Origin: an uncultured Desulfuromonas sp.
GTDB lineage: Bacteria; Desulfobacterota; Desulfuromonadia; Desulfuromonadales; Desulfuromonadaceae
DNA: 64,000 nt
NCBI RefSeq assembly: GCF_963678835.1
Contig: NZ_OY787469.1
Coordinates: forward strand, 3,286,001 to 3,350,000
Direction: 5' to 3'
Part shown: positions 3,157-47,853 of the stretch, piece after piece
Layout: each line of letters begins with the position of its first letter
How positions within the stretch are numbered: the stretch's first letter is position 1
Translations under genes and position numbers: made by a program
Notes under the pieces: model-generated
The model's database searches: none
What the model saw: only the letters and a program-made list of their open reading frames with translations
What the model was told of the DNA's origin: nothing

Positions 3157-3716
3157 GCGTCACCTTCCAATCGTTCGAGCCAGCCGGGCAAATAGAGCGG
3201 CTTTTTCTGGCGGATGTAGTGCTGATAGGCTTCGCCCTTGAGCGCCATGAGCAGGGCTGTTTTGTAGGGGCAGATGTTGATGGCTTCAATGGTGATCGGG
3301 CCGATGATGCCGTCAACTGCGAGCGGTCCGCGCTGGAAAAGGCGCGCCATGGCCTGCCGCCACTTGTTGCGGCGGACTGCTTTGACGTCGCCACCGCACA
3401 CCTGGTTGATGGCGCGTTGCAGAAGCTTGATGGCACGGCGTTGGCCGGTATTGACGGCGAGGTCAAATGTTTTAGCCGCCAAGTCGTGGGCACTGCTTTG
3501 ATCTGCAATGCGGTTTATGCGCGGCAGGTGGTAGTAGTCGCGGTAGTAGATACGTACGGCATCTTCAATCGTCAGGTTTTTGATATCCAAATCTGGATAG
3601 GATCTTTTACTGATGCCGTATTTTGTCTCGCCGCCGGGATCAGCAGGATCGAAGGTATAGCCACCTTCAAACTGCAGGGTGTAGGCTGCGATGCGTTCAA
3701 ATACTGGTGTGATCAT
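3153..3716 (-). CDS. Endolysin, glycoside hydrolase family 108 (ZliS-like)
   Basis: 187 residues from ATG 3716; GGAG lies 9 bases upstream. A second ATG (3722) and a TTG (3731) are in frame. The N-terminus FERIAAYTLQFEGGYTFDPADPGGETKYGIS carries the catalytic Glu of GH108 lysozymes (EGGY). The C-terminal part, around GPLAVDGIIGPITIEAIN, is the peptidoglycan-binding-3 domain usual in this family. It cleaves the glycan backbone at lysis. No signal peptide is visible, so a holin or the neighbouring genes must release it. First gene of the late block after the terminator at 3905. Confidence 0.9.
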   Translation of the reverse strand: MITPVFERIAAYTLQFEGGYTFDPADPGGETKYGISKRSYPDLDIKNLTIEDAVRIYYRDYYHLPRINRIADQSSAHDLAAKTFDLAVNTGQRRAIKLLQRAINQVCGGDVKAVRRNKWRQAMARLFQRGPLAVDGIIGPITIEAINICPYKTALLMALKGEAYQHYIRQKKPLYLPGWLERLEGDA

Positions 3717-7601: not shown

Positions 7602-7712
7602 GAAAAATCCCGGAGGTTCAGGAGGATGAAACCTCCGGGCAATGTCGTGCTTCTGGCTGCTCTTCAGACCATGACCGCCACGTCATGGTGACCGCCCAGC
7701 TGGGCGGTTTCG
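7602..7712 (-). terminator. Cluster of three inverted repeats, one terminator-like
   Basis: Going along the plus strand: CCCGGAGGTT/AACCTCCGGG (arms 7609-7618 and 7630-7639), ACCATGAC/GTCATGGT (about 7669-7690) and the palindrome ACCGCCCAGCTGGGCGGT (about 7691-7708). On the minus strand the first one is followed by ATTTTTC, so it can end transcription of the gene at 7713. Confidence 0.55.
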
Positions 7713-7874
7713 CTATTGTTCGAGTTGTTCTGCTGCGCTTTCCAGAGCATTGCGCACATATTCAGCTTCTTTAGACTTTCGGCTCTCAAGTGGTACTGTG
7801 GCCTGCAATAGAAGGTCGGCGACTAAGTCAGGATCAAGTTCCATTTCTTCTAGCTCTTCTCGATCTGCAAACAT
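7713..7874 (-). CDS. Small acidic prophage protein (53 aa)
   Basis: 53 codons from ATG 7874, with a strong AAGGAG nine bases upstream. The protein is acidic and helical (FADREELEEMELDPDLVADL... RNALESAAEQLEQ). No family recognised. The good ribosome-binding site and the tight fit between the upstream gene and the hairpin cluster make it a likely real gene. Confidence 0.6.
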   Translation of the reverse strand: MFADREELEEMELDPDLVADLLLQATVPLESRKSKEAEYVRNALESAAEQLEQ

Positions 7875-16288: not shown

Positions 16289-16840
16289 TCTCAGTGATTC
16301 ACACTCTGGTGTGGCACCAATCAAACGGGCGGGACGGTGCCCGCCCTGCAGTCGTGTGTTATTGAGCAACCAAGCCCTCCCGTTCAGTAGCGCCGAACGA
16401 AGAGAACGATCACCGCGATGGTCGTCGGCAACCTGTTTGAGCGTCAGCGAGTTTTGCCGACATCGCGGTGTTAGTGAACGCAGAGAGGGAACCCGAAGGG
16501 CGCAATGACGGGAGTCGATTTTGTGGTACTTTTGTCGACGCAAAAGTGCCCCGACGTGCGGGCGCGGAAGCCCGCGTCACGTGGGTACCAACATCGCGAA
16601 CGGATGAGGTTCGCCGGTGCGATTCGTTTCAAGTTGCAAACCACTGAAGCTCAAGATCAAAGTCAAGGTCGCCGGGTCTCGTCCCGGCAGCCGACATCCT
16701 TTTGACTGGCCGCTCAAAAGGATGCAAAAACCAGCTTGAACACCTCCTAAACCTGGATTCACCGACAATGCGTCTGTTTCCGTTATGCGTCACGGATTCG
16801 GCTCGTCGGCAACCTGTTTGAGCGGTAGCGAGAAGTAGAT
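16289..16840. repeat. Family A repeat, solo copy 1
   Basis: Same unit as the array at 42.7-45.1 kb, but permuted: it begins at the GGGCGGGACGGTGCCCGCCC hairpin (about 16333) and ends with a short jump back to TCGGCAACCTGTTTGAGCG, as if it had recombined within the repeat. Hairpins conserved: GCGGGC/GCCCGC, GGTACTTTTG/CAAAAGTGCC, CATCCTTTTGA/TCAAAAGGATG. Non-coding. It lies between the prophage end and arfB. Confidence 0.8.
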
Positions 16841-20234: not shown

Positions 20235-20255
20235 CGGCTTCTTCTCTTTTAAAGA

Positions 20256-20922
20256 GCAAGGTCAAGGGCGCCGGATCTCGTCCCGGCAGCCGACATCCTT
20301 TTGACTAGCCGCTCAAAAGTATGCAAAAGCCAGCTGAACTTCTCCTGAACCTGAATCAACCGATAATGAGGCTATTTCCGTTTTGCTTTACAGATTCGGC
20401 TCGCCTCAACAAGGAGAATATTGGATAAACACGTCCTGTGTTTCCCAATAACGCAAGTCGAAAATGCGATTTCCGTCTTGCTTACACCATCAAAGATGGT
20501 GGTCGCCCGGCCATGGGCTCCACAGACGGTTTTCAACCGTCTGTCAGCTCGGCGAATCGCGCGCCACATCAGCACAGGCGTAAAACGTTGATAACCGTCT
20601 TACGCTCACTCTATTTCTTCCGTGGCACCTATTAAACGGGTGGGCAGTGCCCACCCTGCCTAGGCTTGTTTTTTTGCACTTCAGCCCTCCCGTACTGCAG
20701 CGCCGAACGCAAGGAGCGTCGTCGTGATGGTTTTCGGCAAACTGTTTGAGCGCCAGCGAGTTTTTGCCGATATCACGGCGTAAGCGATTGAAGAGAGGGG
20801 ACTCGAAGAGCGCGAAGCCCGGGAGTCGTTTTTCCGTCTCTTTTGACGACGCAAAAGGGACTCGACGTGTGGGCACGGAAGCCCACGTCACGTGCGTACC
20901 AAGCATTGTGAGAGCATGACGT
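20256..20922. repeat. Family A repeat, solo copy 2, interrupted by family B
   Basis: A complete but diverged family A unit in the same order as the array units, starting at the GCCGGATCTCGTCCCGGC hairpin. At about 20406 it is interrupted by a family B element and resumes at GGCGAATCGCG. Its stems differ from the array yet still pair: GTGGGC/GCCCAC in place of GCGGGC/GCCCGC, GTGAT/ATCAC in place of GCGAT/ATCGC. Confidence 0.8.
20406..20544. mobile_element. Family B MITE-like element nested in family A
   Basis: Contains the B-specific core CGAAAATGCGATTTCCGTCTTG and the B end with ACAGACGGTTTTCAACCGTCTGT. It replaces the tip of the family A hairpin that in other copies reads GCCGCCCTTTTGGTCGGCG. 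No clear target duplication is visible. Confidence 0.7.
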
Positions 20923-20983
20923 ACGATTGAAATATAAAAAACCAACAGTCCCTTATGAACATTCTTTCGGAACGCGTACTCAC

Positions 20984-33698: not shown

Positions 33699-34318
33699 AT
33701 TACCTGCTGCACGCCCTGCTCAGTGACGATGACCCATTGGTCCGGGCGGGCAACCTGCTGGGCGACTTTGTTAAAGGCCGTCTGACGCAAGGACGTTTTC
33801 CCGACAGGCTGTTACACGGCTTGCAGCAACATCGTCAGCTTGACCGCTTCGCCCACGATCATCCAGCCTTCTGTCGCAGTCAGCACCGTCTCGATGACCG
33901 CTTTGGCCGTTATCGCGGCATCATGATCGACCTGTTTTACGATCATTTTACCGCACGGGACTGGAACGATTACCATCCAGACCCTCTTGAGCACTTCTCT
34001 CAATCCCTCTATCACACGTTGCAACACCATCAGAATATCCTGCCGAAAACCTTTCTGCCCCTCTTGCCACGCATGGTGGAAAAAGACTGGCTCACCAGTT
34101 ACCGGGATAAAACAGTGATGCAACGCGCTCTGATTCATACCGCCGGAAGAATCCGCCATGACAATCCACTCGCAGAGGGCTACGGTGAACTGGAGAAACA
34201 TTATTCGCAATTGCGTGAGGATTGTCGCCAGTTTATCGGCGATGCCCGTAAGATATTTTTAGGCGAGAAAACCAGACAGGGAGCGCTGATAGAAATCGAT
34301 TGTACGCCACCGTTGTGA
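33695..34318 (+). CDS. acpH: Acyl-carrier-protein phosphodiesterase AcpH
   Basis: 207 residues, starting with a GTG that overlaps the upstream stop (GTGA). NYLLHALLSDDDPLVRAGNLLGDFVKG, LDRFAHDHPAF, RYRGIMIDLFYDHFTARDW and the final GDARKIFLG follow DUF479/AcpH closely (E. coli 193 residues). The HD-like metal site removes 4'-phosphopantetheine from ACP. Cotranscribed with the M23 peptidase gene. Confidence 0.92.
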   Translation: MNYLLHALLSDDDPLVRAGNLLGDFVKGRLTQGRFPDRLLHGLQQHRQLDRFAHDHPAFCRSQHRLDDRFGRYRGIMIDLFYDHFTARDWNDYHPDPLEHFSQSLYHTLQHHQNILPKTFLPLLPRMVEKDWLTSYRDKTVMQRALIHTAGRIRHDNPLAEGYGELEKHYSQLREDCRQFIGDARKIFLGEKTRQGALIEIDCTPPL

Positions 34319-34372
34319 CACAAAAGTGGTCCGACCCGTGAGCGTGGAAGCGCACATCCTATAGTGAGCAAA
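34318..34372. repeat. Family A fragment
   Basis: ACACAAAAGTGGTCCGAC, then GTGGAAGCGCACAT, is a degenerate piece of the family A unit (compare the end of the array at 45057-45105). Confidence 0.6.
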
Positions 34373-34660: not shown

Positions 34661-34980
34661 GCAGGATGTTGAAAAAGTCCCATCCGGGGCCTTTTCAATG
34701 ACGCAAACCGAAAATGCGATTTCCGTCTTGCTTACAAGATCAAGGGCTTGAAAACCTGTCCTAGTGCTCTGTCAATGCTAAAAATTCGAGTGTATGGCAC
34801 AGCATCGTGCCGTTCTCACAAGGCGCGAAATCGCCGAAGTGGCCACTCCACTTCAAGATTTTGCAACGCAGTGAGAATGGTACGAGGCGAAGCCAGACCC
34901 GAAAATTTAGTGTTGTCAGAGCACTAGATTTTAGCCATCCGTCCATGGGCTCCACAGGCTGTTTTTCAACCGCCTGTTAG
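34661..34980. mobile_element. Family B MITE-like element split by family C
   Basis: Left part 34661-34760 (GGATGTTGAAAAAGTCCC, CGAAAATGCGATTTCCGTC) and right part 34928-34980 (CATCCGTCCATGGGCTCC, ACAGGCTGTTTTTCAACCGCCTGT) join into a ~153-bp B copy. The 167 bp between them are a separate element. Confidence 0.8.
34761..34927. mobile_element. Family C MITE (167 bp) nested in family B
   Basis: Perfect outer repeat CTAGTGCTCTG...CAGAGCACTAG continuing as an imperfect 28-bp terminal inverted repeat (CTAGTGCTCTGTCAATGCTA versus CTAGTGCTCTGACAACACTA). The TA next to each end would fit a TA target duplication, as for IS630/mariner-type elements. No coding capacity; it needs a transposase from elsewhere. 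Confidence 0.8.
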
Positions 34981-35003
34981 AAATCATGGTTTCGCCAATG
35001 GCA

Positions 35004-37289: not shown

Positions 37290-37460
37290 TTGCGAGAGAG
37301 GCGACGCGAGAGATGACGAAAGTACAACGTGTACGGTAGGTCAACTTTCCCCTTACGGGGCGCATCGCTGTTTTGCAAACACCGTGTTCACAAAACATGC
37401 TGGCACCTTGGTTGTCAGGTTGCCGGGCGCTTGGCTCATGCCGCCACGCCTCTCTTAATG
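37290..37460 (-). ncRNA. SAM riboswitch (S-box type core) of metY
   Basis: The leader contains the SAM-I/SAM-IV core: GCGCCCGGCAACCTG, then CAAGGTGCCAGCATG. The closing stem P1 can form between AGAGAGGCG (about 37448-37457) and CGCCTCTCT (37296-37304). A CCCCGTAAGGGG hairpin lies between. It should switch metY off when S-adenosylmethionine is plentiful. The element deviates from the classical K-turn helix, so the subclass is open. Confidence 0.75.
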
Positions 37461-37469
37461 CATGGATAA

Positions 37470-41414: not shown

Positions 41415-42521
41415 ATGCTAGAACAACCAAGTAGGCGTTCTAATGAATTTCTTTCATTGCAGGAGCAGACAGTGTCTTCATTTCCTCAGGAAGCATCCTC
41501 GTCTCTTCAGGAAAAAAAAACTCAAGGCCGTAAAGTGTGCGAAAAATGCCTCGAGTTAGAAGAGATGACCTCCGCTTTGGAAGAATATATCGGCCGGACT
41601 AACGAACAACTGCTCAAATCCGAAATGTCCGATATGGAATTGGAACAGATTTTTTCCGCCTGCGCCGATCCAATGGTGGTGATCCGCGACGACGGGATCA
41701 TCGTTCGTGCCAACCGCAGCATGCTGGAACATCTCGGCTGTTGTTGCGAAAACGTCATTGGTCATTCCTGCACCGAGCTACTCAGTGAGCAGGAATGTAA
41801 ACTGGCCAACTCCCGTAAGAATAAAAGTCAGACCGATATCGAAATCACCAACGAAGACGGTGAGATCATTAACTATATCATGACCACAACACCACTGGTT
41901 ACCCTTGATGGTACCCCTGGAACCCTGGCTCAATACAAAGACATTACCGACCGCAAAAAAGCCGAGCAGGCCCTGGAAAAAGCCCATGCTGCCCTGGAAC
42001 GCATCGCCCGCATTGACGGTCTGACCCAGATCCCAAACCGCCGCACTTTTGATGAAAGCTTTACCGAGCAATGGCAAAAAAGCCTTGCCGAGCAATCCCC
42101 GCTCTCCATCATCTTGTGCGACATCGACTTTTTCAAACGCTACAACGACACTTACGGTCACCAGCAAGGTGACACCTGTCTGTCCAGTGTGGCCAAAGCC
42201 CTGGAACAGAGCCTGTCCGACAAAAGCGGCGGACTGGTCGCCCGTTACGGTGGTGAGGAGTTCATCTTCCTGTTGCCCGGAACCTCTCTGGAAGAAGCCA
42301 CCGCCCACGCTAGAACCGCACGGCACAATGTTGAGCAACTGGCTTTGGAGCATCAGGCTTCCGAAATCGCCGACAATGTCACCCTGAGTCTCGGAGTCTC
42401 CTGTACCATTCCCCAAAGCGACATGCAGCCACAGCATCTGATTCGTACGGCTGATGAGGCGTTGTATCAGTCTAAGGAAACGGGGCGGAATCGGGTGACG
42501 GCTGTGGAGTTTTCCGGTTAA
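41415..42521 (+). CDS. PAS-GGDEF diguanylate cyclase
   Basis: 368 residues; soluble. A charged N-terminal helix with CEKCLELEEM, a PAS domain (QIFSACADPMVVIRDDGIIVRANRSML...GTLAQYKDITDRKKAEQ), then GGDEF: DGLTQIPNRRTF, CDIDFFKRYNDTYGHQQGD and RYGGEEFIFLLPG. It makes cyclic di-GMP in response to a PAS-sensed signal; several cysteines in the PAS part (LGCCCENVIGHSC) hint at a redox or metal input. A GTG at 41472 with AGGAG six bases before is an alternative start. Confidence 0.92.
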   Translation: MLEQPSRRSNEFLSLQEQTVSSFPQEASSSLQEKKTQGRKVCEKCLELEEMTSALEEYIGRTNEQLLKSEMSDMELEQIFSACADPMVVIRDDGIIVRANRSMLEHLGCCCENVIGHSCTELLSEQECKLANSRKNKSQTDIEITNEDGEIINYIMTTTPLVTLDGTPGTLAQYKDITDRKKAEQALEKAHAALERIARIDGLTQIPNRRTFDESFTEQWQKSLAEQSPLSIILCDIDFFKRYNDTYGHQQGDTCLSSVAKALEQSLSDKSGGLVARYGGEEFIFLLPGTSLEEATAHARTARHNVEQLALEHQASEIADNVTLSLGVSCTIPQSDMQPQHLIRTADEALYQSKETGRNRVTAVEFSG

Positions 42522-42689
42522 TTTCCTCTCAATTTCACCTTATTTTATGAATCAGATGAGCGAGAGCTGTTGCTTGAAATTTTTTGCGTCAGCAAGGAAG
42601 GAGCTATAGTCGTTCTATGGCGACGACCGATAACGCTGCTGACGTGAAAAAGATCTGCAACAACTCCGTGAAGGCTGATTGATGACAAC

Positions 42690-45125
42690 CCCTTGGGAGT
42701 CGATTTTGCTCCCCTTTTGTCGACGCAAAAGGGGACCGAAGTGCGGGCGCGGAAGCCCGCGTCACGTGGGTACCAACATCGCGAACGGATGACGTTCGCT
42801 GGTGCGATTCGTTTCGGATGACGAACCACTGAAGGTCAAGGTCACAGTCAAGACCGCCGGGTTTCGTCCCGGCAGCCGACAGCCTTTTGACTAGCCGCTC
42901 AAAAGGATGCAAAAACCAGCTGAACACCTCCTGAACCTGGATCCACCGACAATGGGTCTGTTTCCGTTATGCTTCACAGATTCGGCTCGCCGCCCTTTTG
43001 GTCGGCGAATCTTGCGTCTCATCAGCCATGGCGTAAAACGTTGATAACAGGCTTGCGCCTCACTCTATTTCTTCCGTGGCCCCGCTCAAGCGGGTGGGAC
43101 GGTGCCCACCCTTGCGGCAGAGTGTCATTTAGCAGCCAAGCCCTCCCGTTCAGCAGCACCGAACGCAATGAACGTCAGCGCAATGGTTGTCGGCAACCTG
43201 TCTGAGCGTCAGCGAGTTTTGCCGACATTGCGATGTAAGAGAATGGAGAGAGGGAACCCGATAGGGTGCAATGACGGGAGTCGATTTTGCTCCCCTTTTG
43301 TCGACGCAAAAGGGGGCCGACGGGCGGGCGCGGAAGCCCGCGTCACGTGGGTACCAACATCGCGAACGGATGATGTTCGCCAAAGCGGTCAGTTTCGGAT
43401 GACGAAGCACTGAAGAGCAAGATCAAAGTCAAGGTCGCCGGGTTTCGTCCCGGCAGCCGACATACTTTTGACTGGCCGCTCAAAAGGATGCAAAAACCAG
43501 CTTGAACACCTCCTGAACCTGGATCCACCGACAATGCGTCTGTTTCCGTTATGCGTCACGGATTCGGCTCGCCGCCCTTTTGGTCGGCGAATCTTGCGTC
43601 TCATCAGCCATGGCGTAAAACGTTGATAACAGGCTTGCGCCTCACTCTATTTCTTCCGTGGCCCCGATCAAGCGGGTGGGACGGTGCCCACCCTTGCGGC
43701 AGAGTGTCATTTAGCAGCCAAGCCCTCCCGTTCAGCAGCACCGAACGCAATGAACGTCAGCGCAATGGTTGTCGGCAACCTGTTTGAGCGGTAGCGAGTT
43801 TTGCCGACATTGCGATGTAAGAGAATGGAGAGAGGGAACCCGATAGGGTGCAATGACGGGAGTCGATTTTGCCTCCCTTTTGTCGACGCAAAAGGGAGCC
43901 GACGGGCGGGCGCGGAAGCCCGCGTCATGTGGGTACCATCATTGCAAACGGATGAGGTTAGACAGAGCAATCCTTTCCGAATGACGAACCATTGAAGATC
44001 AAAGTCAAGACCGCCGGGTCTCGTCCCGGCAGCCGACATACTTTTGACTAGCCGCTCAAAAGTATGCAAAAGCCAGCTGAACACCTCCTGCCCCTCAGAT
44101 CAACCGACACTGTGTCTGTTTCCGCTATGCTTTGCAGATCCGGCTCGCCGCCCTTTAGGCCGGCGAATCATGCAACTCATCATCTTTGGCGTAAAACGTT
44201 GATAACAACCTTAAGTCGCGCTCTATCTCTGGTGTGGTACCGATCAAGCGGGCGGGACGGTGCCCGCCCTGCAGTCGTGTGTTATTCAGCAGCCAAGCTC
44301 TCCCGTTCAGCAGCGCCGAACGAAGAGAACGGTCAGCGCGATGGTCGTCGGCAACCTGTTTGAGCGTCAGCGAGTTTTGCCGACATCGCGGTGTTAGTAA
44401 ACGCAGAGAGGGAACCCGTAAGGGCGCAATGACGGGAGTCGATTTTGCGGTACTTTTGTCGACGCAAAAGTGCCCCGACGTGCGGGCGCGGAAGCCCGCG
44501 TCACGTGGGTACCACCTTCGCGAACGGATGAAGTTCGCCAGCGCGGTCAGTTTCGGATGACGAACCACTGAAGAGCAAGATCAAAGTCAAGGTCGCCGGG
44601 TTTCGTCCCGGCAGCCGACATCCTTTTGACTGGCCGCTCAAAAGGATGCAAAAACCGGCTTGAACTTCTCCTGAACCTGGCCCCACCTACACTGAGTCTG
44701 TTTCCGTAATGCTTCACGGATTCGGCTCGCCGCCCTTTAGGTCGGCGAATCTTGCGTCTCATCAGCCATGGCGTAAAACGTTGATAACAACCGCCCGGCT
44801 CGTTTTACTTCTTCCGTGGCACCGATCTAACGGGTGGGACGGTGCCCACCCTTCAATCGTGGGTTATTTAGCAACCAAGCCCTCCCGTTCAGCAGCACCG
44901 AACGCAATGAGCGTCAACGCGATGGTTGTCGGCAACCTGTTTGAGGACTGATGCCGACTGGGCGAGTTTTGCCGACATCGCGATGTAAGGGAATGGAGAG
45001 AGGGAACCCGCCAGGGTGCAATGGTCGGGAGTCGATTTTGCGCCACTTTTGTCGACGCAAAAGTGGTCCGACGTGCGGGCGCGGAAGCCCGCGTCATGTG
45101 GGTACCATCAAGGCAAACGGATGAA
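42690..45125. repeat. Family A tandem array, four units plus a partial
   Basis: A partial unit (42690-42828) is followed by four head-to-tail units: 42829-43409, 43410-43991, 43992-44567 and 44568-45125 (581, 582, 576, 558 bp). Each holds the same chain of hairpins: CGGG-TCGTCCCG, CCTTTTGA/TCAAAAGG, GGGTGGGACGGTGCCCACCC, a long TGTCGGCAA/TTGCCGACA stem, a C..CTTTTGTCGACGCAAAAG..G stem, and GCGGGCGCGGAAGCCCGC. Frames are open on both strands but are not conserved between units, so it is judged non-coding. Stem changes between units are often compensated. Confidence 0.9.
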
Positions 45126-45144
45126 GCTGACCATCGCAACGATT

Positions 45145-45187
45145 CCCCCAAAACAAAACTGGCAGAGTGGACTCACCACTCTGCCAG
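45145..45187 (-). terminator. Terminator of the aas operon
   Basis: CTGGCAGAGTGG/CCACTCTGCCAG (12-bp perfect stem, 5-base loop), followed on the minus strand by TTTTGTTTTG. Confidence 0.92.
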
Positions 45188-45213
45188 CGTTTTCATCGAT
45201 CTTAAATAATAAC

Positions 45214-47853
45214 CTACTCCGCCAGCATCTCTCGCAAAGCGCGATAATTGGTCTTACCGGTACCGAGCACCGGAATCTCATCCACCATACGGATCTGACG
45301 GATATTATGCAGCGGCGACAACCCGGCATCACGAATCACCTGATTCACCTGCTCGCGTTCCAGCGGTACCCGACTGAACAGCACCAGCTCAGCATGGGTA
45401 TCCGGATTGATCGCTTCCACGGCAATCAACGGTCCGTCTCCATCCACGGCAACATTTTGTAACTCAGGTGCTGCACCAATCGTCTCCTCAATCGCCGGCA
45501 GGGAAATCATCTCACCACCGAGCTTGACAAAGCGTTTGAGCCGTCCGCAAAAGGTCAAACCACCTTGTTCGTTGCGCCGAACCAGATCGCCGGTGTTATA
45601 CCAGGCTTTGCCGTCAAGCACGATAAACGGTGATTTGACACTCTTTTCAAGATAGCCGTTAAACACATTCGGCCCGCGCACCACCAGGATACCGGCTTGA
45701 TCCTCGGGCAACGGCTGCATGGTTTCCGGATGAACCAGTTGGTAGTCCATCGACGGCATCACTTGGCCGATGGTGCCCGGCACCGGGTTGTTCGGCGCAT
45801 TCACGCTGACCAGCGGCGAGCATTCGGTTACACCATAGCCCTCACACACTGTTGCTTGAGGACAACGCTCTGCAAGCAGTTGATAAGTGGATTCCGGGCA
45901 TTTTTCCGCACCGGTAAAGATCAAACGCAGGCTCTGCAACTGATTTTCATGGGCAGAACCGGCAATGGCGGCGAGAAAGGTCGGCGTACCCACCACCACC
46001 GAGCAGCGGTAGGCCTCCACATGTTGCGCCAGAATCGCCCCATCGGTCGGGTTGGGATAATAGGCAGTACGCAGTCCCAGGCATAACGGCATGACAATGG
46101 TGCCGGATAAACCAAGAGAGTGAAACGGCGGCAGCATCCCCAACAGGCGATCACTTTCTTTGAGCGGAATCACCTGGGTCATGTCGTCCATGTTGGTGAG
46201 GATGTTACGATGGCTCAGCGGTACTGACTTTGGCAACGCCTCACTGCCGCTGGTGAACAACACGGCAGCGGTATCATGAATCTCTTTGGTGGATAAAAAG
46301 AAGCTGAAAAACTGCCCTTTCAGGCGTGCTTTGAGTTTATCGACAAGAGTTAACTGACCCACCAGGTTTTCCATGGCCATCCACTCGGCATCCACCTTGC
46401 CCACGTCAACACCACGCGTCCTGAGTTTTTCGATTAACAGGGCCGATGTCAACACGCGGGTTGTGCCGGTTTGTTCCAAAGCATGAGATAGGTAGCGTTC
46501 GCCGGTGGTCCAATTGAGCAACACCGGGCGCTTGCCACTGAACACCACCGCCAGCCAACACAGACAAGCTGCTAACGACGACGGCAACATAATGGCGATA
46601 GAGCCGTCTTCAATCTCACGCAACACCGGCTGCAGCGCCAACACACCGGTCAACAGTTGACGCCAGGTTTTCGCCCCGCCCTGCTGATCGGCAACAATCA
46701 CTTGGTCCGGGTTGTTCTTGGCCTGATAAAGAATCAACTCAGTAAGATTATCTGCCTGACGAAACGCCAAGGTCTTATCCGAGCGCTGATCAAACCAGCC
46801 ATCCGCCACCGGCTTGAGCGGCTCCGCAGCAAAACCAAGACCTTCGCCACGCGCGGCCAGCAGGCAATCGGACACCCGCTGCAAGGCATCAAGATTTTCG
46901 ACATCAACGCTAAATTCCTCATTCAACCAGGTCAAAAATTCCATCACTGCCAAACTGTCAAGCCCCAGATCATAGGCCAGGGTCATGTCATCTTTAATCT
47001 TATGATGCCCACTGATCTCCTTGAGTTTTTCTTCCACCAGTTGCCGTGTGGCCGCTGGAATATGACTGGCATCGCTGGAAAACTGCGCTTGAGGCGGTGC
47101 AGGCAACTCACAGGTCTGATTGCCCTGCCAAAAATAATCGGGCACGGTAAAGGCCGGTTGCGTCACCTCATTGTAAAAGGTTTCCAGATACCCATTGATC
47201 TCCTGGCGGCTGCCTTGGCGGGGAAAATCCGTCTCTTCGATAAATTCGACGGTCACGGTGCGCTTGGGCATGAACACCAGACCATTGACCAGCAGTTTCG
47301 GCAACATGGTCAACAGCGTTTTAAAGAAGTGGGGTTTATCGCCGTGGGCACGGCTGAACCGGCTGCCCCATAATCCCGAGGTACGCACCAGTACCACCCG
47401 TGCTTCAGGCACGGCTTTGACCAGACGATCGACGGCACTACTGCCACGCAACTCCTCATTGGGACCACGATAGATCCGGCCAGCCGGATACACCAGCAAA
47501 TGCTCGCCCTGCTCCAGGCTGCGCTCCATCAACTGCAGCGCCTCGGCAACATCACCACGCTCGCCCTGATTGCTCTGCTGACTCAGGTCGGGAATCAACA
47601 ACGCCTGCATTTTATTAAGAAGAAATCCGGTCACCGGATGATCTGCCTGAGCCCGGTCTGCCAATGGGCGTACGGTAAAATGTTGCTGCAACGCCACGTT
47701 GACAATCAGTGGGTCGACCAATGCCGGATGGTTGGGCAAAAACAACATCCCCACCTTGCCGTCACGACGGATTTTATCAAGACCTTTTATGTCAATGCGA
47801 TAGCGCAAGCGCAACAGGGTGCGCAAGATAAACAGGAAAAATGATCTAAACAC
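45214..47853 (-). CDS. aas: Aas-type acyltransferase/acyl-ACP synthetase with internal ACP domain
   Basis: 879 residues from a GTG (AAGGAGG six bases upstream). Three parts: PlsC acyltransferase (NHPALVDP, VYPAGRIYRG), an acyl-carrier domain around residues 280-345 with the phosphopantetheine serine in DLGLDSLAVMEF, and an AMP-forming ligase (LFTSGSEALPKSVPLSHRN, GYGVTECSPLVS, WYNTGDLVRR). E. coli Aas (719 residues) lacks the carrier domain. Role: re-acylation of lysophospholipids using free fatty acids. In operon with lplT. Confidence 0.9.
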   Translation of the reverse strand: MFRSFFLFILRTLLRLRYRIDIKGLDKIRRDGKVGMLFLPNHPALVDPLIVNVALQQHFTVRPLADRAQADHPVTGFLLNKMQALLIPDLSQQSNQGERGDVAEALQLMERSLEQGEHLLVYPAGRIYRGPNEELRGSSAVDRLVKAVPEARVVLVRTSGLWGSRFSRAHGDKPHFFKTLLTMLPKLLVNGLVFMPKRTVTVEFIEETDFPRQGSRQEINGYLETFYNEVTQPAFTVPDYFWQGNQTCELPAPPQAQFSSDASHIPAATRQLVEEKLKEISGHHKIKDDMTLAYDLGLDSLAVMEFLTWLNEEFSVDVENLDALQRVSDCLLAARGEGLGFAAEPLKPVADGWFDQRSDKTLAFRQADNLTELILYQAKNNPDQVIVADQQGGAKTWRQLLTGVLALQPVLREIEDGSIAIMLPSSLAACLCWLAVVFSGKRPVLLNWTTGERYLSHALEQTGTTRVLTSALLIEKLRTRGVDVGKVDAEWMAMENLVGQLTLVDKLKARLKGQFFSFFLSTKEIHDTAAVLFTSGSEALPKSVPLSHRNILTNMDDMTQVIPLKESDRLLGMLPPFHSLGLSGTIVMPLCLGLRTAYYPNPTDGAILAQHVEAYRCSVVVGTPTFLAAIAGSAHENQLQSLRLIFTGAEKCPESTYQLLAERCPQATVCEGYGVTECSPLVSVNAPNNPVPGTIGQVMPSMDYQLVHPETMQPLPEDQAGILVVRGPNVFNGYLEKSVKSPFIVLDGKAWYNTGDLVRRNEQGGLTFCGRLKRFVKLGGEMISLPAIEETIGAAPELQNVAVDGDGPLIAVEAINPDTHAELVLFSRVPLEREQVNQVIRDAGLSPLHNIRQIRMVDEIPVLGTGKTNYRALREMLAE

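What the first reader, a model, noticed from the sequence alone, without database searches (positions are those of the whole stretch)
42690..45125. Family A: a hairpin-rich ~580-bp non-coding unit with compensatory changes, tandem and dispersed
Seen: four head-to-tail units plus a partial, two solo copies (16.3 and 20.3 kb) and a fragment (34.3 kb). At least four stems differ between copies while still pairing: CATCCTTTTG/CAAAAGGATG versus CATACTTTTG/CAAAAGTATG (unit 3); GGGTGGG/CCCACCC versus GGGCGGG/CCCGCCC; CGCAATG/CATTGCG versus CGCGATG/CATCGCG; CTCCCTTTTG/CAAAAGGGAG versus GCCACTTTTG/CAAAAGTGGT versus GGTACTTTTG/CAAAAGTGCC. Frames on either strand are not kept. Inference: selection acts on fold, as expected for a structured RNA or for a mobile element that moves as folded single-stranded DNA. 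I recognise no named class.
Basis: partly seen in the sequence, partly recalled or inferred. Interest (0 to 1): 0.78.

Follow-up and report, generated by a model that had tools for sequence, protein, structure and literature searches.

The report
Tandem hairpin-pseudoknot intergenic repeats
A large non-coding repeat, kept as a folded shape rather than as a protein code, occurs in about 150 copies between genes of this bacterium, often several in a row; related versions occur in other families of its order, and what copies or uses it is unknown.

Summary
The window array (42530-45147) has four head-to-tail ~580-bp units plus a partial; both solo copies and the fragment are real. The genome holds 155 matches to one core. 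The unit is larger than described: an optional ~165-bp hairpin module makes it ~747 bp. Units start with a two-hairpin core and end with an inverted one. In each core, the second hairpin's loop complements a stretch beyond an A-rich spacer, an H-type pseudoknot. That pairing stays complementary across families (49 loops, 0 of 5000 permutations). Stems covary under a phylogeny-preserving null here and in another family. Other families have tandem units of ~505 and ~640 bp. Arrays lie after gene ends: 25 convergent, 16 tandem, 0 divergent of 41. They grow by local duplication and are exact targets of two IS families. Best reading: a large REP/BIME-like structured repeat, probably non-autonomous and mobile. 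RNA versus single-stranded DNA is undecided. No core lies beside 47 Y1-transposase loci examined, and no Rfam family matches. It is an unnamed, large variant of a known kind.

The parts
42530..45147 (+). whole array block between the convergent ends of a diguanylate-cyclase-like gene (41415-42521, +) and a large acyl/AMP-binding-type gene (45214-47853, -; both names from reading the sequence, no family scan)
   Evidence: breakpoints from comparison with G002, G008, G007
42545..42690 (+). optional ~165-bp hairpin module (D), present here only before unit 1
   Evidence: same module as the 14 inter-unit pieces aligned; blastn 42545 = full-unit position 7; folds with z -7.85 on + and -6.17 on -
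42698..43278 (+). unit 1
   Evidence: 95% to unit 2
43279..43860 (+). unit 2 (query unit)
   Evidence: 127 matches in own genome
43861..44436 (+). unit 3
   Evidence: 84% to unit 2
44437..45023 (+). unit 4
   Evidence: 88% to unit 2
45030..45124 (+). partial unit ending the array
   Evidence: 89% over 95 bp
43437..43504 (+). direct core of unit 2: GC hairpin, S2 hairpin CATAC../GGATG (one mismatch), GCAAAA spacer, P' (CCAG) complementary to part of the S2 loop (CTGG)
44619..44648 (+). S2 hairpin of the direct core, unit 4 (perfect CATCCTTTTG/CAAAAGGATG)
44438..44498 (-). inverted core at the 3' end of a unit; read on + it is P' GTCGA, TTTTGC, S2 GGTACTTTTG/CAAAAGTGCC with loop TCGAC, then GC hairpin GCGGGC/GCCCGC
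16304..16832 (+). solo/partial copy; present in G008 (split by an IS3-like element) and G002
20252..20930 (+). solo copy: direct core at left, inverted core at right, with a second repeat inserted in the middle; orthologous in G008 and G002 (there split by an IS110-family element), absent in G007
34313..34351 (+). fragment of the inverted core
   Evidence: score 33 v 24 max of 281 random 60-mers

Best explanation
This is a family of large REP/BIME-like structured intergenic repeats. Each unit has, at its two ends and inverted to each other, a conserved ~65-nt core: a GC hairpin, then a ~10-bp hairpin whose loop pairs with a stretch beyond an A-rich spacer (an H-type pseudoknot). SHOWN: copies, arrays, inverted cores, loop-tail complementarity, covariation, the same plan with other unit lengths in other families, placement after gene ends, copy-number turnover at stable sites with local duplication, and two IS families sitting at fixed points of the hairpins. 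INFERRED: the element is non-autonomous and spreads when its cores, extruded as folded single strands, are recognised by a trans-acting enzyme (an HUH-type transposase is the most economical guess). Unequal recombination between units then expands and contracts each array, and selection on the fold of the cores keeps them recognisable. Arrays survive only where they do not separate a promoter from its gene.
For: 155 direct cores in the genome, reversed-pattern control 0. Loop:tail complementarity: 49 unique loops, mean score 10.51 v 8.53 (sd 0.29) permuted, 0 of 5000, with pairs such as GGCGT/ACGCC, CGGCA/TGCCG, GGCCA/TGGCC, GTCGA/TCGAC, GTCGT/ACGAC. Covariation: 5 of 72 named pairs or 5 of 54 pairs predicted on both strands, and 3 of 46 in G017. 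G017 units are whole-length imperfect inverted repeats: 17 of 17, best E 1.8e-26, shuffled 0 of 17. Context 25 convergent/16 tandem/0 divergent of 41 v 19/102/26 of 147 other gene pairs. Best match of a unit is in its own locus for 21 of 42, expected 1.2. An IS3-like element at one point of the direct core in 4 of 4 copies and an IS110-family element at one point of the inverted core in 2 of 2 copies in the sequence held, much of which was fetched because it holds the element. Occupied in both genomes at 12 of 12 sites compared with G008, with different amounts of element. All 18 relatives with a match or 50 and scanned have a Y1 match.
Against: No Y1 gene examined has a core beside it: 27 loci in this genome (blastn with the unit, 1.5-kb flanks) and 20 stretches chosen from the relatives' list. 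One IS200-type gene has a solo 165-bp module beside it and one RAYT has a half-element about 2 kb away. Y1 genes are in 52 of 58 relatives anyway, so their presence says little. No clean empty site with a target duplication was found; all 12 sites compared with G008 are occupied, so movement itself was not seen. Array orientation against GC skew gave 26/7 v 3/4 (p=0.075), no clear lagging-strand preference. The whole unit is not unusually stable (RNA z -0.58 and -0.87, DNA z -1.68), though the cores are (z -2.0 to -3.0).
Confidence: 0.5

Rival explanations
1. A functional structured RNA: the cores are pseudoknots in transcript 3' ends or in a non-coding RNA. The A-rich spacer lies in the groove of the 10-bp stem, and the fold protects, terminates or recruits a protein in the transcripts that run into the array.
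For: Interleaved (pseudoknotted) pairs that stay complementary are hard to explain in double-stranded DNA. A-rich linker and U/A-rich stem resemble RNA pseudoknot triplexes (recalled). Arrays follow gene ends. Wobble events favour the + strand in the hand-picked helices (57 v 23) and in D folded on that strand (38 v 10).
Against: The wobble asymmetry is not seen in pairs predicted from both strands (22 v 14; D 6 v 6; G017 2 v 1). In tandem gene contexts arrays are 8 same/8 opposite to the genes. No sigma-70-like promoter in the array (0, shuffles 1.0). No Rfam family. About 150 copies in variable tandem number is unusual for a trans-acting RNA.
Confidence: 0.25
2. A chromosome-architecture repeat, like BIMEs that bind gyrase, IHF or other nucleoid proteins: copies are kept because a protein binds the hairpins or dyads, and arrays amplify the effect.
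For: High copy, tandem, between convergent genes where supercoils could collide. The 20-kb solo copy is 93% identical to G002 over 349 bp while flanking stretches are 83-86%.
Against: The other orthologous solo copy (16 kb) is 82% to G002, like its flank at 84%. Dyads for a dimeric protein would not need the loop-to-tail pairing.
Confidence: 0.15
3. Pure recombination debris: mosaics of short hairpin repeats that expand by slippage, with apparent covariation due to common descent.
For: Modular mosaics, half-units and nested repeats are common. The all-pairs covariation test gives only 1 pair at E<0.05.
Against: The same two-core inverted plan with different unit lengths in several families, and loop:tail pairs that differ between families yet stay complementary. 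Paired columns change 271 times in 143 columns (1.9 each), unpaired 1727 times in 437 (4.0 each).
Confidence: 0.07

Closest known systems
REP / BIME / REPIN repeats with RAYT (TnpA_REP) transposases
   Same: extragenic palindromes in high copy, inverted pairs, tandem arrays with variable number, near gene ends, targets for IS elements (PMC8266576 passages, PMC3733652 passages, PMC1525189 search listing)
   Different: unit 500-750 bp rather than 20-50-nt REPs; two-hairpin core with pseudoknot; no GTAG tag; not beside any of the Y1/RAYT genes examined
Anonymous 'multicopy nucleotide sequences' of Geobacter and Pelobacter genomes
   Same: intergenic multicopy families, some palindromic, in related bacteria (PMC2996986, PMC2700814, PMC3543383: passages only)
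   Different: unnamed alignments in supplements that I could not read; no tandem ~580-bp units or pseudoknot mentioned in the passages seen
MITEs
   Same: non-coding, dispersed, inverted ends
   Different: no target duplication or parent transposon ends found; ends are pseudoknotted hairpins; tandem arrays
Large ornate bacterial RNAs (OLE, GOLLD, ROOL)
   Same: ~600-nt non-coding, several stems and pseudoknot (recalled, and abstract starts of PMC9723947 and PMC12286853 in a listing)
   Different: no Rfam match, ~150 copies, no promoter-like site, no partner gene noticed

Membership tests
REP/BIME (RAYT-associated) | extragenic palindromes in high copy, as inverted pairs and tandem clusters | tested here: met
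REP/BIME (RAYT-associated) | REP unit of 20-50 nt | tested here: not met
   core ~65 nt with two hairpins; unit ~505-747 bp
REP/BIME (RAYT-associated) | GTAG (or CGTC) tetranucleotide at the foot of the hairpin | tested here: not met
   no GTAG at the feet of the stems in the core alignments, by inspection; CGTC occurs near the inverted GC hairpin but without the 8-9-bp stem and CCA tail described for CGTC REPs
REP/BIME (RAYT-associated) | RAYT gene flanked by the repeat | tested here: not met
   0 of 27 Y1 loci in own genome, 0 of 20 stretches chosen from the relatives' list; other Y1 loci of relatives not looked at
REP/BIME (RAYT-associated) | target of specific IS insertions | tested here: met
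   IS3-like 4 of 4, IS110-family 2 of 2 at fixed points in the sequence held, which is enriched for the element
MITE | terminal inverted repeats and target-site duplication | tested here: inconclusive
   inverted cores at both ends; no clean empty site
Known structured RNA family (Rfam 15) | covariance-model match | tested here: not met
   none over the arrays at gathering, none at E<=1 over 42500-45200
Structured non-coding RNA (any) | covarying base pairs | tested here: met
   weak in the all-pairs test
Structured non-coding RNA (any) | transcription | not testable with these tools
   no expression data; no promoter-like site
Retro-element (RT-mobilised) | reverse transcriptase in carrier genomes | tested here: not met
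   no PF00078 match at E<=0.001 in carriers G001, G006, G007 (single contig), G011, G013, G015, G037; own genome has 5 and G002 16
Integron cassette array | attC sites and integron integrase | not tested
   no integrase search made; no attC search made

The most novel reading that the evidence does not exclude
A previously unnamed class of large mobile structured element whose ends are pseudoknots (loop-to-flank pairing), moved or maintained as a folded single strand by something other than a neighbouring RAYT, kept across several families of Desulfuromonadales with family-specific unit length. Single plasmid matches in Pseudomonas antarctica and Diaphorobacter, the second weak, hint that the core may be far wider in Proteobacteria.
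Probability: 0.35. Interest if true: 0.75.

Novelty: new variant of a known kind. Interest (0 to 1): 0.55.

Why it matters
Small REPs are the textbook extragenic repeats of bacteria. A family ten times longer, with pseudoknotted inverted ends and tandem arrays kept across families, would test whether folded single strands other than RAYT substrates can be mobile or selected. It also gives a ready locus set (about 150 copies, amount per site differing between close relatives) for measuring how such arrays move, and a naturally repeated landing site for IS110-family elements.

Tried and rejected
Protein-coding repeat: rejected, no frame is kept. Known RNA family: none. Plasmid or phage origin: unit without a match at E<=0.01 in both collections by distant blastn; core pattern in 1 stretch of viral contigs, two other motifs in none. 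RAYT-linked REPtron: none of 27 own loci and 20 chosen stretches. Reverse-transcription origin: several carriers lack RT. Strand of folding from G.T v A.C events: promising on hand-picked helices, not robust. Whole-unit stability: unremarkable. Orientation to replication: no clear bias. Wide covariance search: R1 hits 6 of 297 genomes of the phylum, four in the order (own included) and two elsewhere, one of these at E 0.0099 (strict filters and 17 candidates scored per genome, so a lower bound). Follow-up of the two plasmid matches: the Diaphorobacter stretch matched only itself; the Pseudomonas stretch matched itself and 18 Bacteroidales plasmids over half or less of the query at E 2e-3, read as chance. 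Second genome pattern was mistyped by one spacer base and found 1 place; not used. Alignments A1 and A2 mixed both core types and were replaced by A3, which still holds one truncated copy (L197). Two notebook figures were later corrected here: '13 of 13' sites is 12 of 12, and '4.4' unpaired changes per column is 4.0.

Not in print, as far as listings go: searches showed no named family of this kind. Passages of five papers were read and one paper gave no hits (106). Supplements could not be opened (cap of zero look-ups; none was tried).

Full report
WHAT IS THERE. The window lies at 3,286,001-3,350,000 of contig 1 of a 4.5-Mb, two-contig genome. Named records with the core pattern are Desulfuromonas sp. 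BM513, Pelovirga terrestris, and Geobacteraceae, Desulfuromonadales and Deltaproteobacteria MAGs (28 stretches), so I infer that the order is Desulfuromonadales. The array has four ~580-bp units and a partial. Searching the genome with one unit gave 127 matches from the 40 of 156 candidates that were scored. A core pattern with up to 3 mismatches gave 155 places (105 forward, 50 reverse; reversed-pattern control 0). I fetched 33 own-genome stretches holding 40 arrays or copies by my clustering.

THE UNIT. Many units carry an extra ~165-bp hairpin module (D), making ~747 bp. In the window array it occurs once, at 42545-42690. D was found in five genomes of the genus, plus one weak match elsewhere (6 of 58 genomes); in G002 there are also D-like copies at 73-77% identity. 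Array ends recur: 19 of 40 start at full-unit positions 276-323 and 17 of 40 end at 602-656. The 20-kb solo copy shows the phase direct core at the left, inverted core at the right. Half-units also occur alone (G008).

THE CORE. The direct core is a GC hairpin (GCCGGG..CCCGGC), six bases, hairpin S2 (CATCCTTTTG..CAAAAGGATG), GCAAAA, then P'. P' is complementary to part of the S2 loop. The inverted core has the same order on the other strand. Examples of loop/P' pairs: GGCGT/ACGCC, CGGCA/TGCCG, GGCCA/TGGCC, CTGG/CCAG, GTCGA/TCGAC, GTCGT/ACGAC, GCGC/GCGC. I took one tail per loop (49 loops from 70 loop-tail pairs and 152 distinct instances; instances had to contain TTTTG..CAAAA, at least 9 of 10 stem pairs and a CA[A/G]AA spacer). 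The mean pairing score was 10.51 against 8.53 (sd 0.29) when tails were permuted, 0 of 5000. Many loops are related by descent within the genus, so the permutation is not a phylogenetic test. Some loops do not pair well (for example TACACA, TCCAGCAA); one copy has its loop inverted (L198) and lost the pairing. On alignment A3 (18 cores) the fixed-register pseudoknot pairs in 52% of cells because own-genus loops use another register; the two stems pair in 95-96%.

COVARIATION. On 60 full units (mean identity 0.867, 53 of them from this genome) I wrote an R-scape-like test that shuffles substitutions on a FastTree tree. All-pairs: 1 pair at E<0.05. Restricted to 72 hand-named helix pairs: 5 pairs at E<0.05, slid controls 0,0,0,1,0,0. 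With 54 pairs predicted from both strands: again 5. In G017 (another family, 17 units): 3 of 46, E below resolution, no slid control run; in D: 0 of 23 (1 of 52 with the one-strand fold). Paired columns show 271 changes in 143 columns, unpaired 1727 in 437. The wobble asymmetry that would name the folded strand (57 v 23; D 38 v 10) is not robust (22 v 14 and 6 v 6 on pairs predicted from both strands), so I do not rely on it. The whole unit is not unusually stable; the cores have z -2.0 to -3.0, the TGTCGGCAA hairpin z -0.26, D z -7.85.

RELATIVES. Unit DNA matches 17 of 58 genomes (own included) at E<=0.001, five of them only weakly (1.8e-6 to 6.1e-4). The core model hits 6 of 297 genomes of the phylum. 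G017 has head-to-tail ~505-bp units, G040 ~640 bp, G035 a pair 671 bp apart. G017 units are imperfect inverted repeats along their whole length (17 of 17, best E 1.8e-26; shuffled 0 of 17). Own-genus units match themselves inverted in 34 of 60 (shuffled 0 of 60), and the five matches shown lie at the direct core. Outside the phylum the evidence is thin: a motif I recalled matched one Pseudomonas antarctica (E 3e-8) and one Diaphorobacter plasmid (E 2e-3). The Diaphorobacter copy has GCGCG-TTTTT-hairpin with loop CGCGC, the same form; the Pseudomonas copy's loop does not pair cleanly.

TURNOVER. At the window site, G008 (flanks 97 and 91% identical) has one unit in another phase, G002 (83, 84%) none, G007 (80, 79%) one. 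Of 12 sites with both flanks found in G008, 12 hold element sequence there, mostly less than here. G008 is a draft, so collapse is possible, and my count windows were cut at 400 bp beyond the gap. Units are most like units of their own locus (21 of 42, expected 1.2; within-locus identity 0.903 v 0.876 permuted, 0 of 2000). The 20-kb solo copy is 93% identical to G002 over 349 bp while flanks are 83-86%; the 16-kb copy is 82%, flank 84%.

CONTEXT. By a longest-ORF caller, 42 arrays or copies are 25 convergent, 16 tandem (8 same strand, 8 opposite), 0 divergent and 1 far from a gene. 147 other gene pairs in the same loci are 19/102/26 (p 2e-9 for convergent, 0.0015 for divergent; 12/45/21 for gaps of 100 or more). 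No sigma-70-like promoter was found in the array.

IS TARGETS. An IS3-like element (HTH_Tnp_1, rve) sits at the same point of the 3' arm of S2 in 4 of 4 copies at different loci, in both orientations, with GAT/ATC repeated. An IS110-family element (DEDD_Tnp_IS110, Transposase_20) sits at one point of the inverted core in 2 of 2 copies in two genomes. These counts come from exact matches to IS ends in the sequence held, much of it fetched because it holds the element, so copies elsewhere are not excluded. REPs are reported as IS targets (PMC1525189, listing).

MECHANISM. Shown: inverted, pseudoknotted ends; dispersal; local tandem growth; safe positions; IS insertions at fixed points. Inferred: a trans-acting enzyme recognises the folded ends. 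Y1 transposases are plentiful (27 matches here; 52 of 58 relatives, including all 18 with a match), but none examined is flanked by a core. Reverse transcriptase is absent from several carriers. A cis-acting or trans-acting RNA remains a serious rival, because interleaved pairs with an A-rich linker look like an RNA pseudoknot.

NOVELTY. It works like a large BIME but fails three REP features (size, GTAG tag, RAYT neighbour), so it is not filed as a REP. Multicopy intergenic families, some palindromic, were noted in Geobacter and Pelobacter genome papers without names (passages of PMC2700814, PMC2996986, PMC3543383; supplements not read), so parts may already be tabulated there.

Noticed in passing
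L056 2118-3519 (own genome C2 ~335 kb); L163 6671-8064 (G002): IS110-family element inserted at the same point of the inverted core in two genomes; a natural target for studying target choice of this IS family.
   Followed up: partly
L057 4184-7122; L169 2958-4196; L275; L276: IS3-like element inserted at the same base of the direct-core hairpin in four loci, both orientations.
   Followed up: partly
window 7651-7715 (-): Type II hammerhead ribozyme above the Rfam gathering score.
   Followed up: no
window 37333-37466 (-): SAM-I/IV riboswitch just above the Rfam gathering score.
   Followed up: no
window 20405-20549 and about 34680-34990: A second repeat (with GAAAATGCGATTTCCGTCTTGCTTAC) nested inside the solo unit and again at 34.7 kb; 89 bp at the first place are missing in G008.
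   Followed up: no
L060 about 3584-3660, L036 about 3474-3524: Short six-base runs (AAGGTC/AAAGTC, AAAACC) just before the first direct core of arrays, as if slippage acts at the edge.
   Followed up: no
L198 176-203: One core whose S2 loop is inverted relative to its neighbour, losing the loop-tail pairing.
   Followed up: no
own genome C1 1301353-1306477; L123 about 685-1660: Three similar RAYT-like genes close together, and a ~170-bp repeat in several copies around another such gene.
   Followed up: no
G002 contig 1: Twelve reverse transcriptase genes with the same score and length (492 aa), probably a group II intron burst.
   Followed up: no
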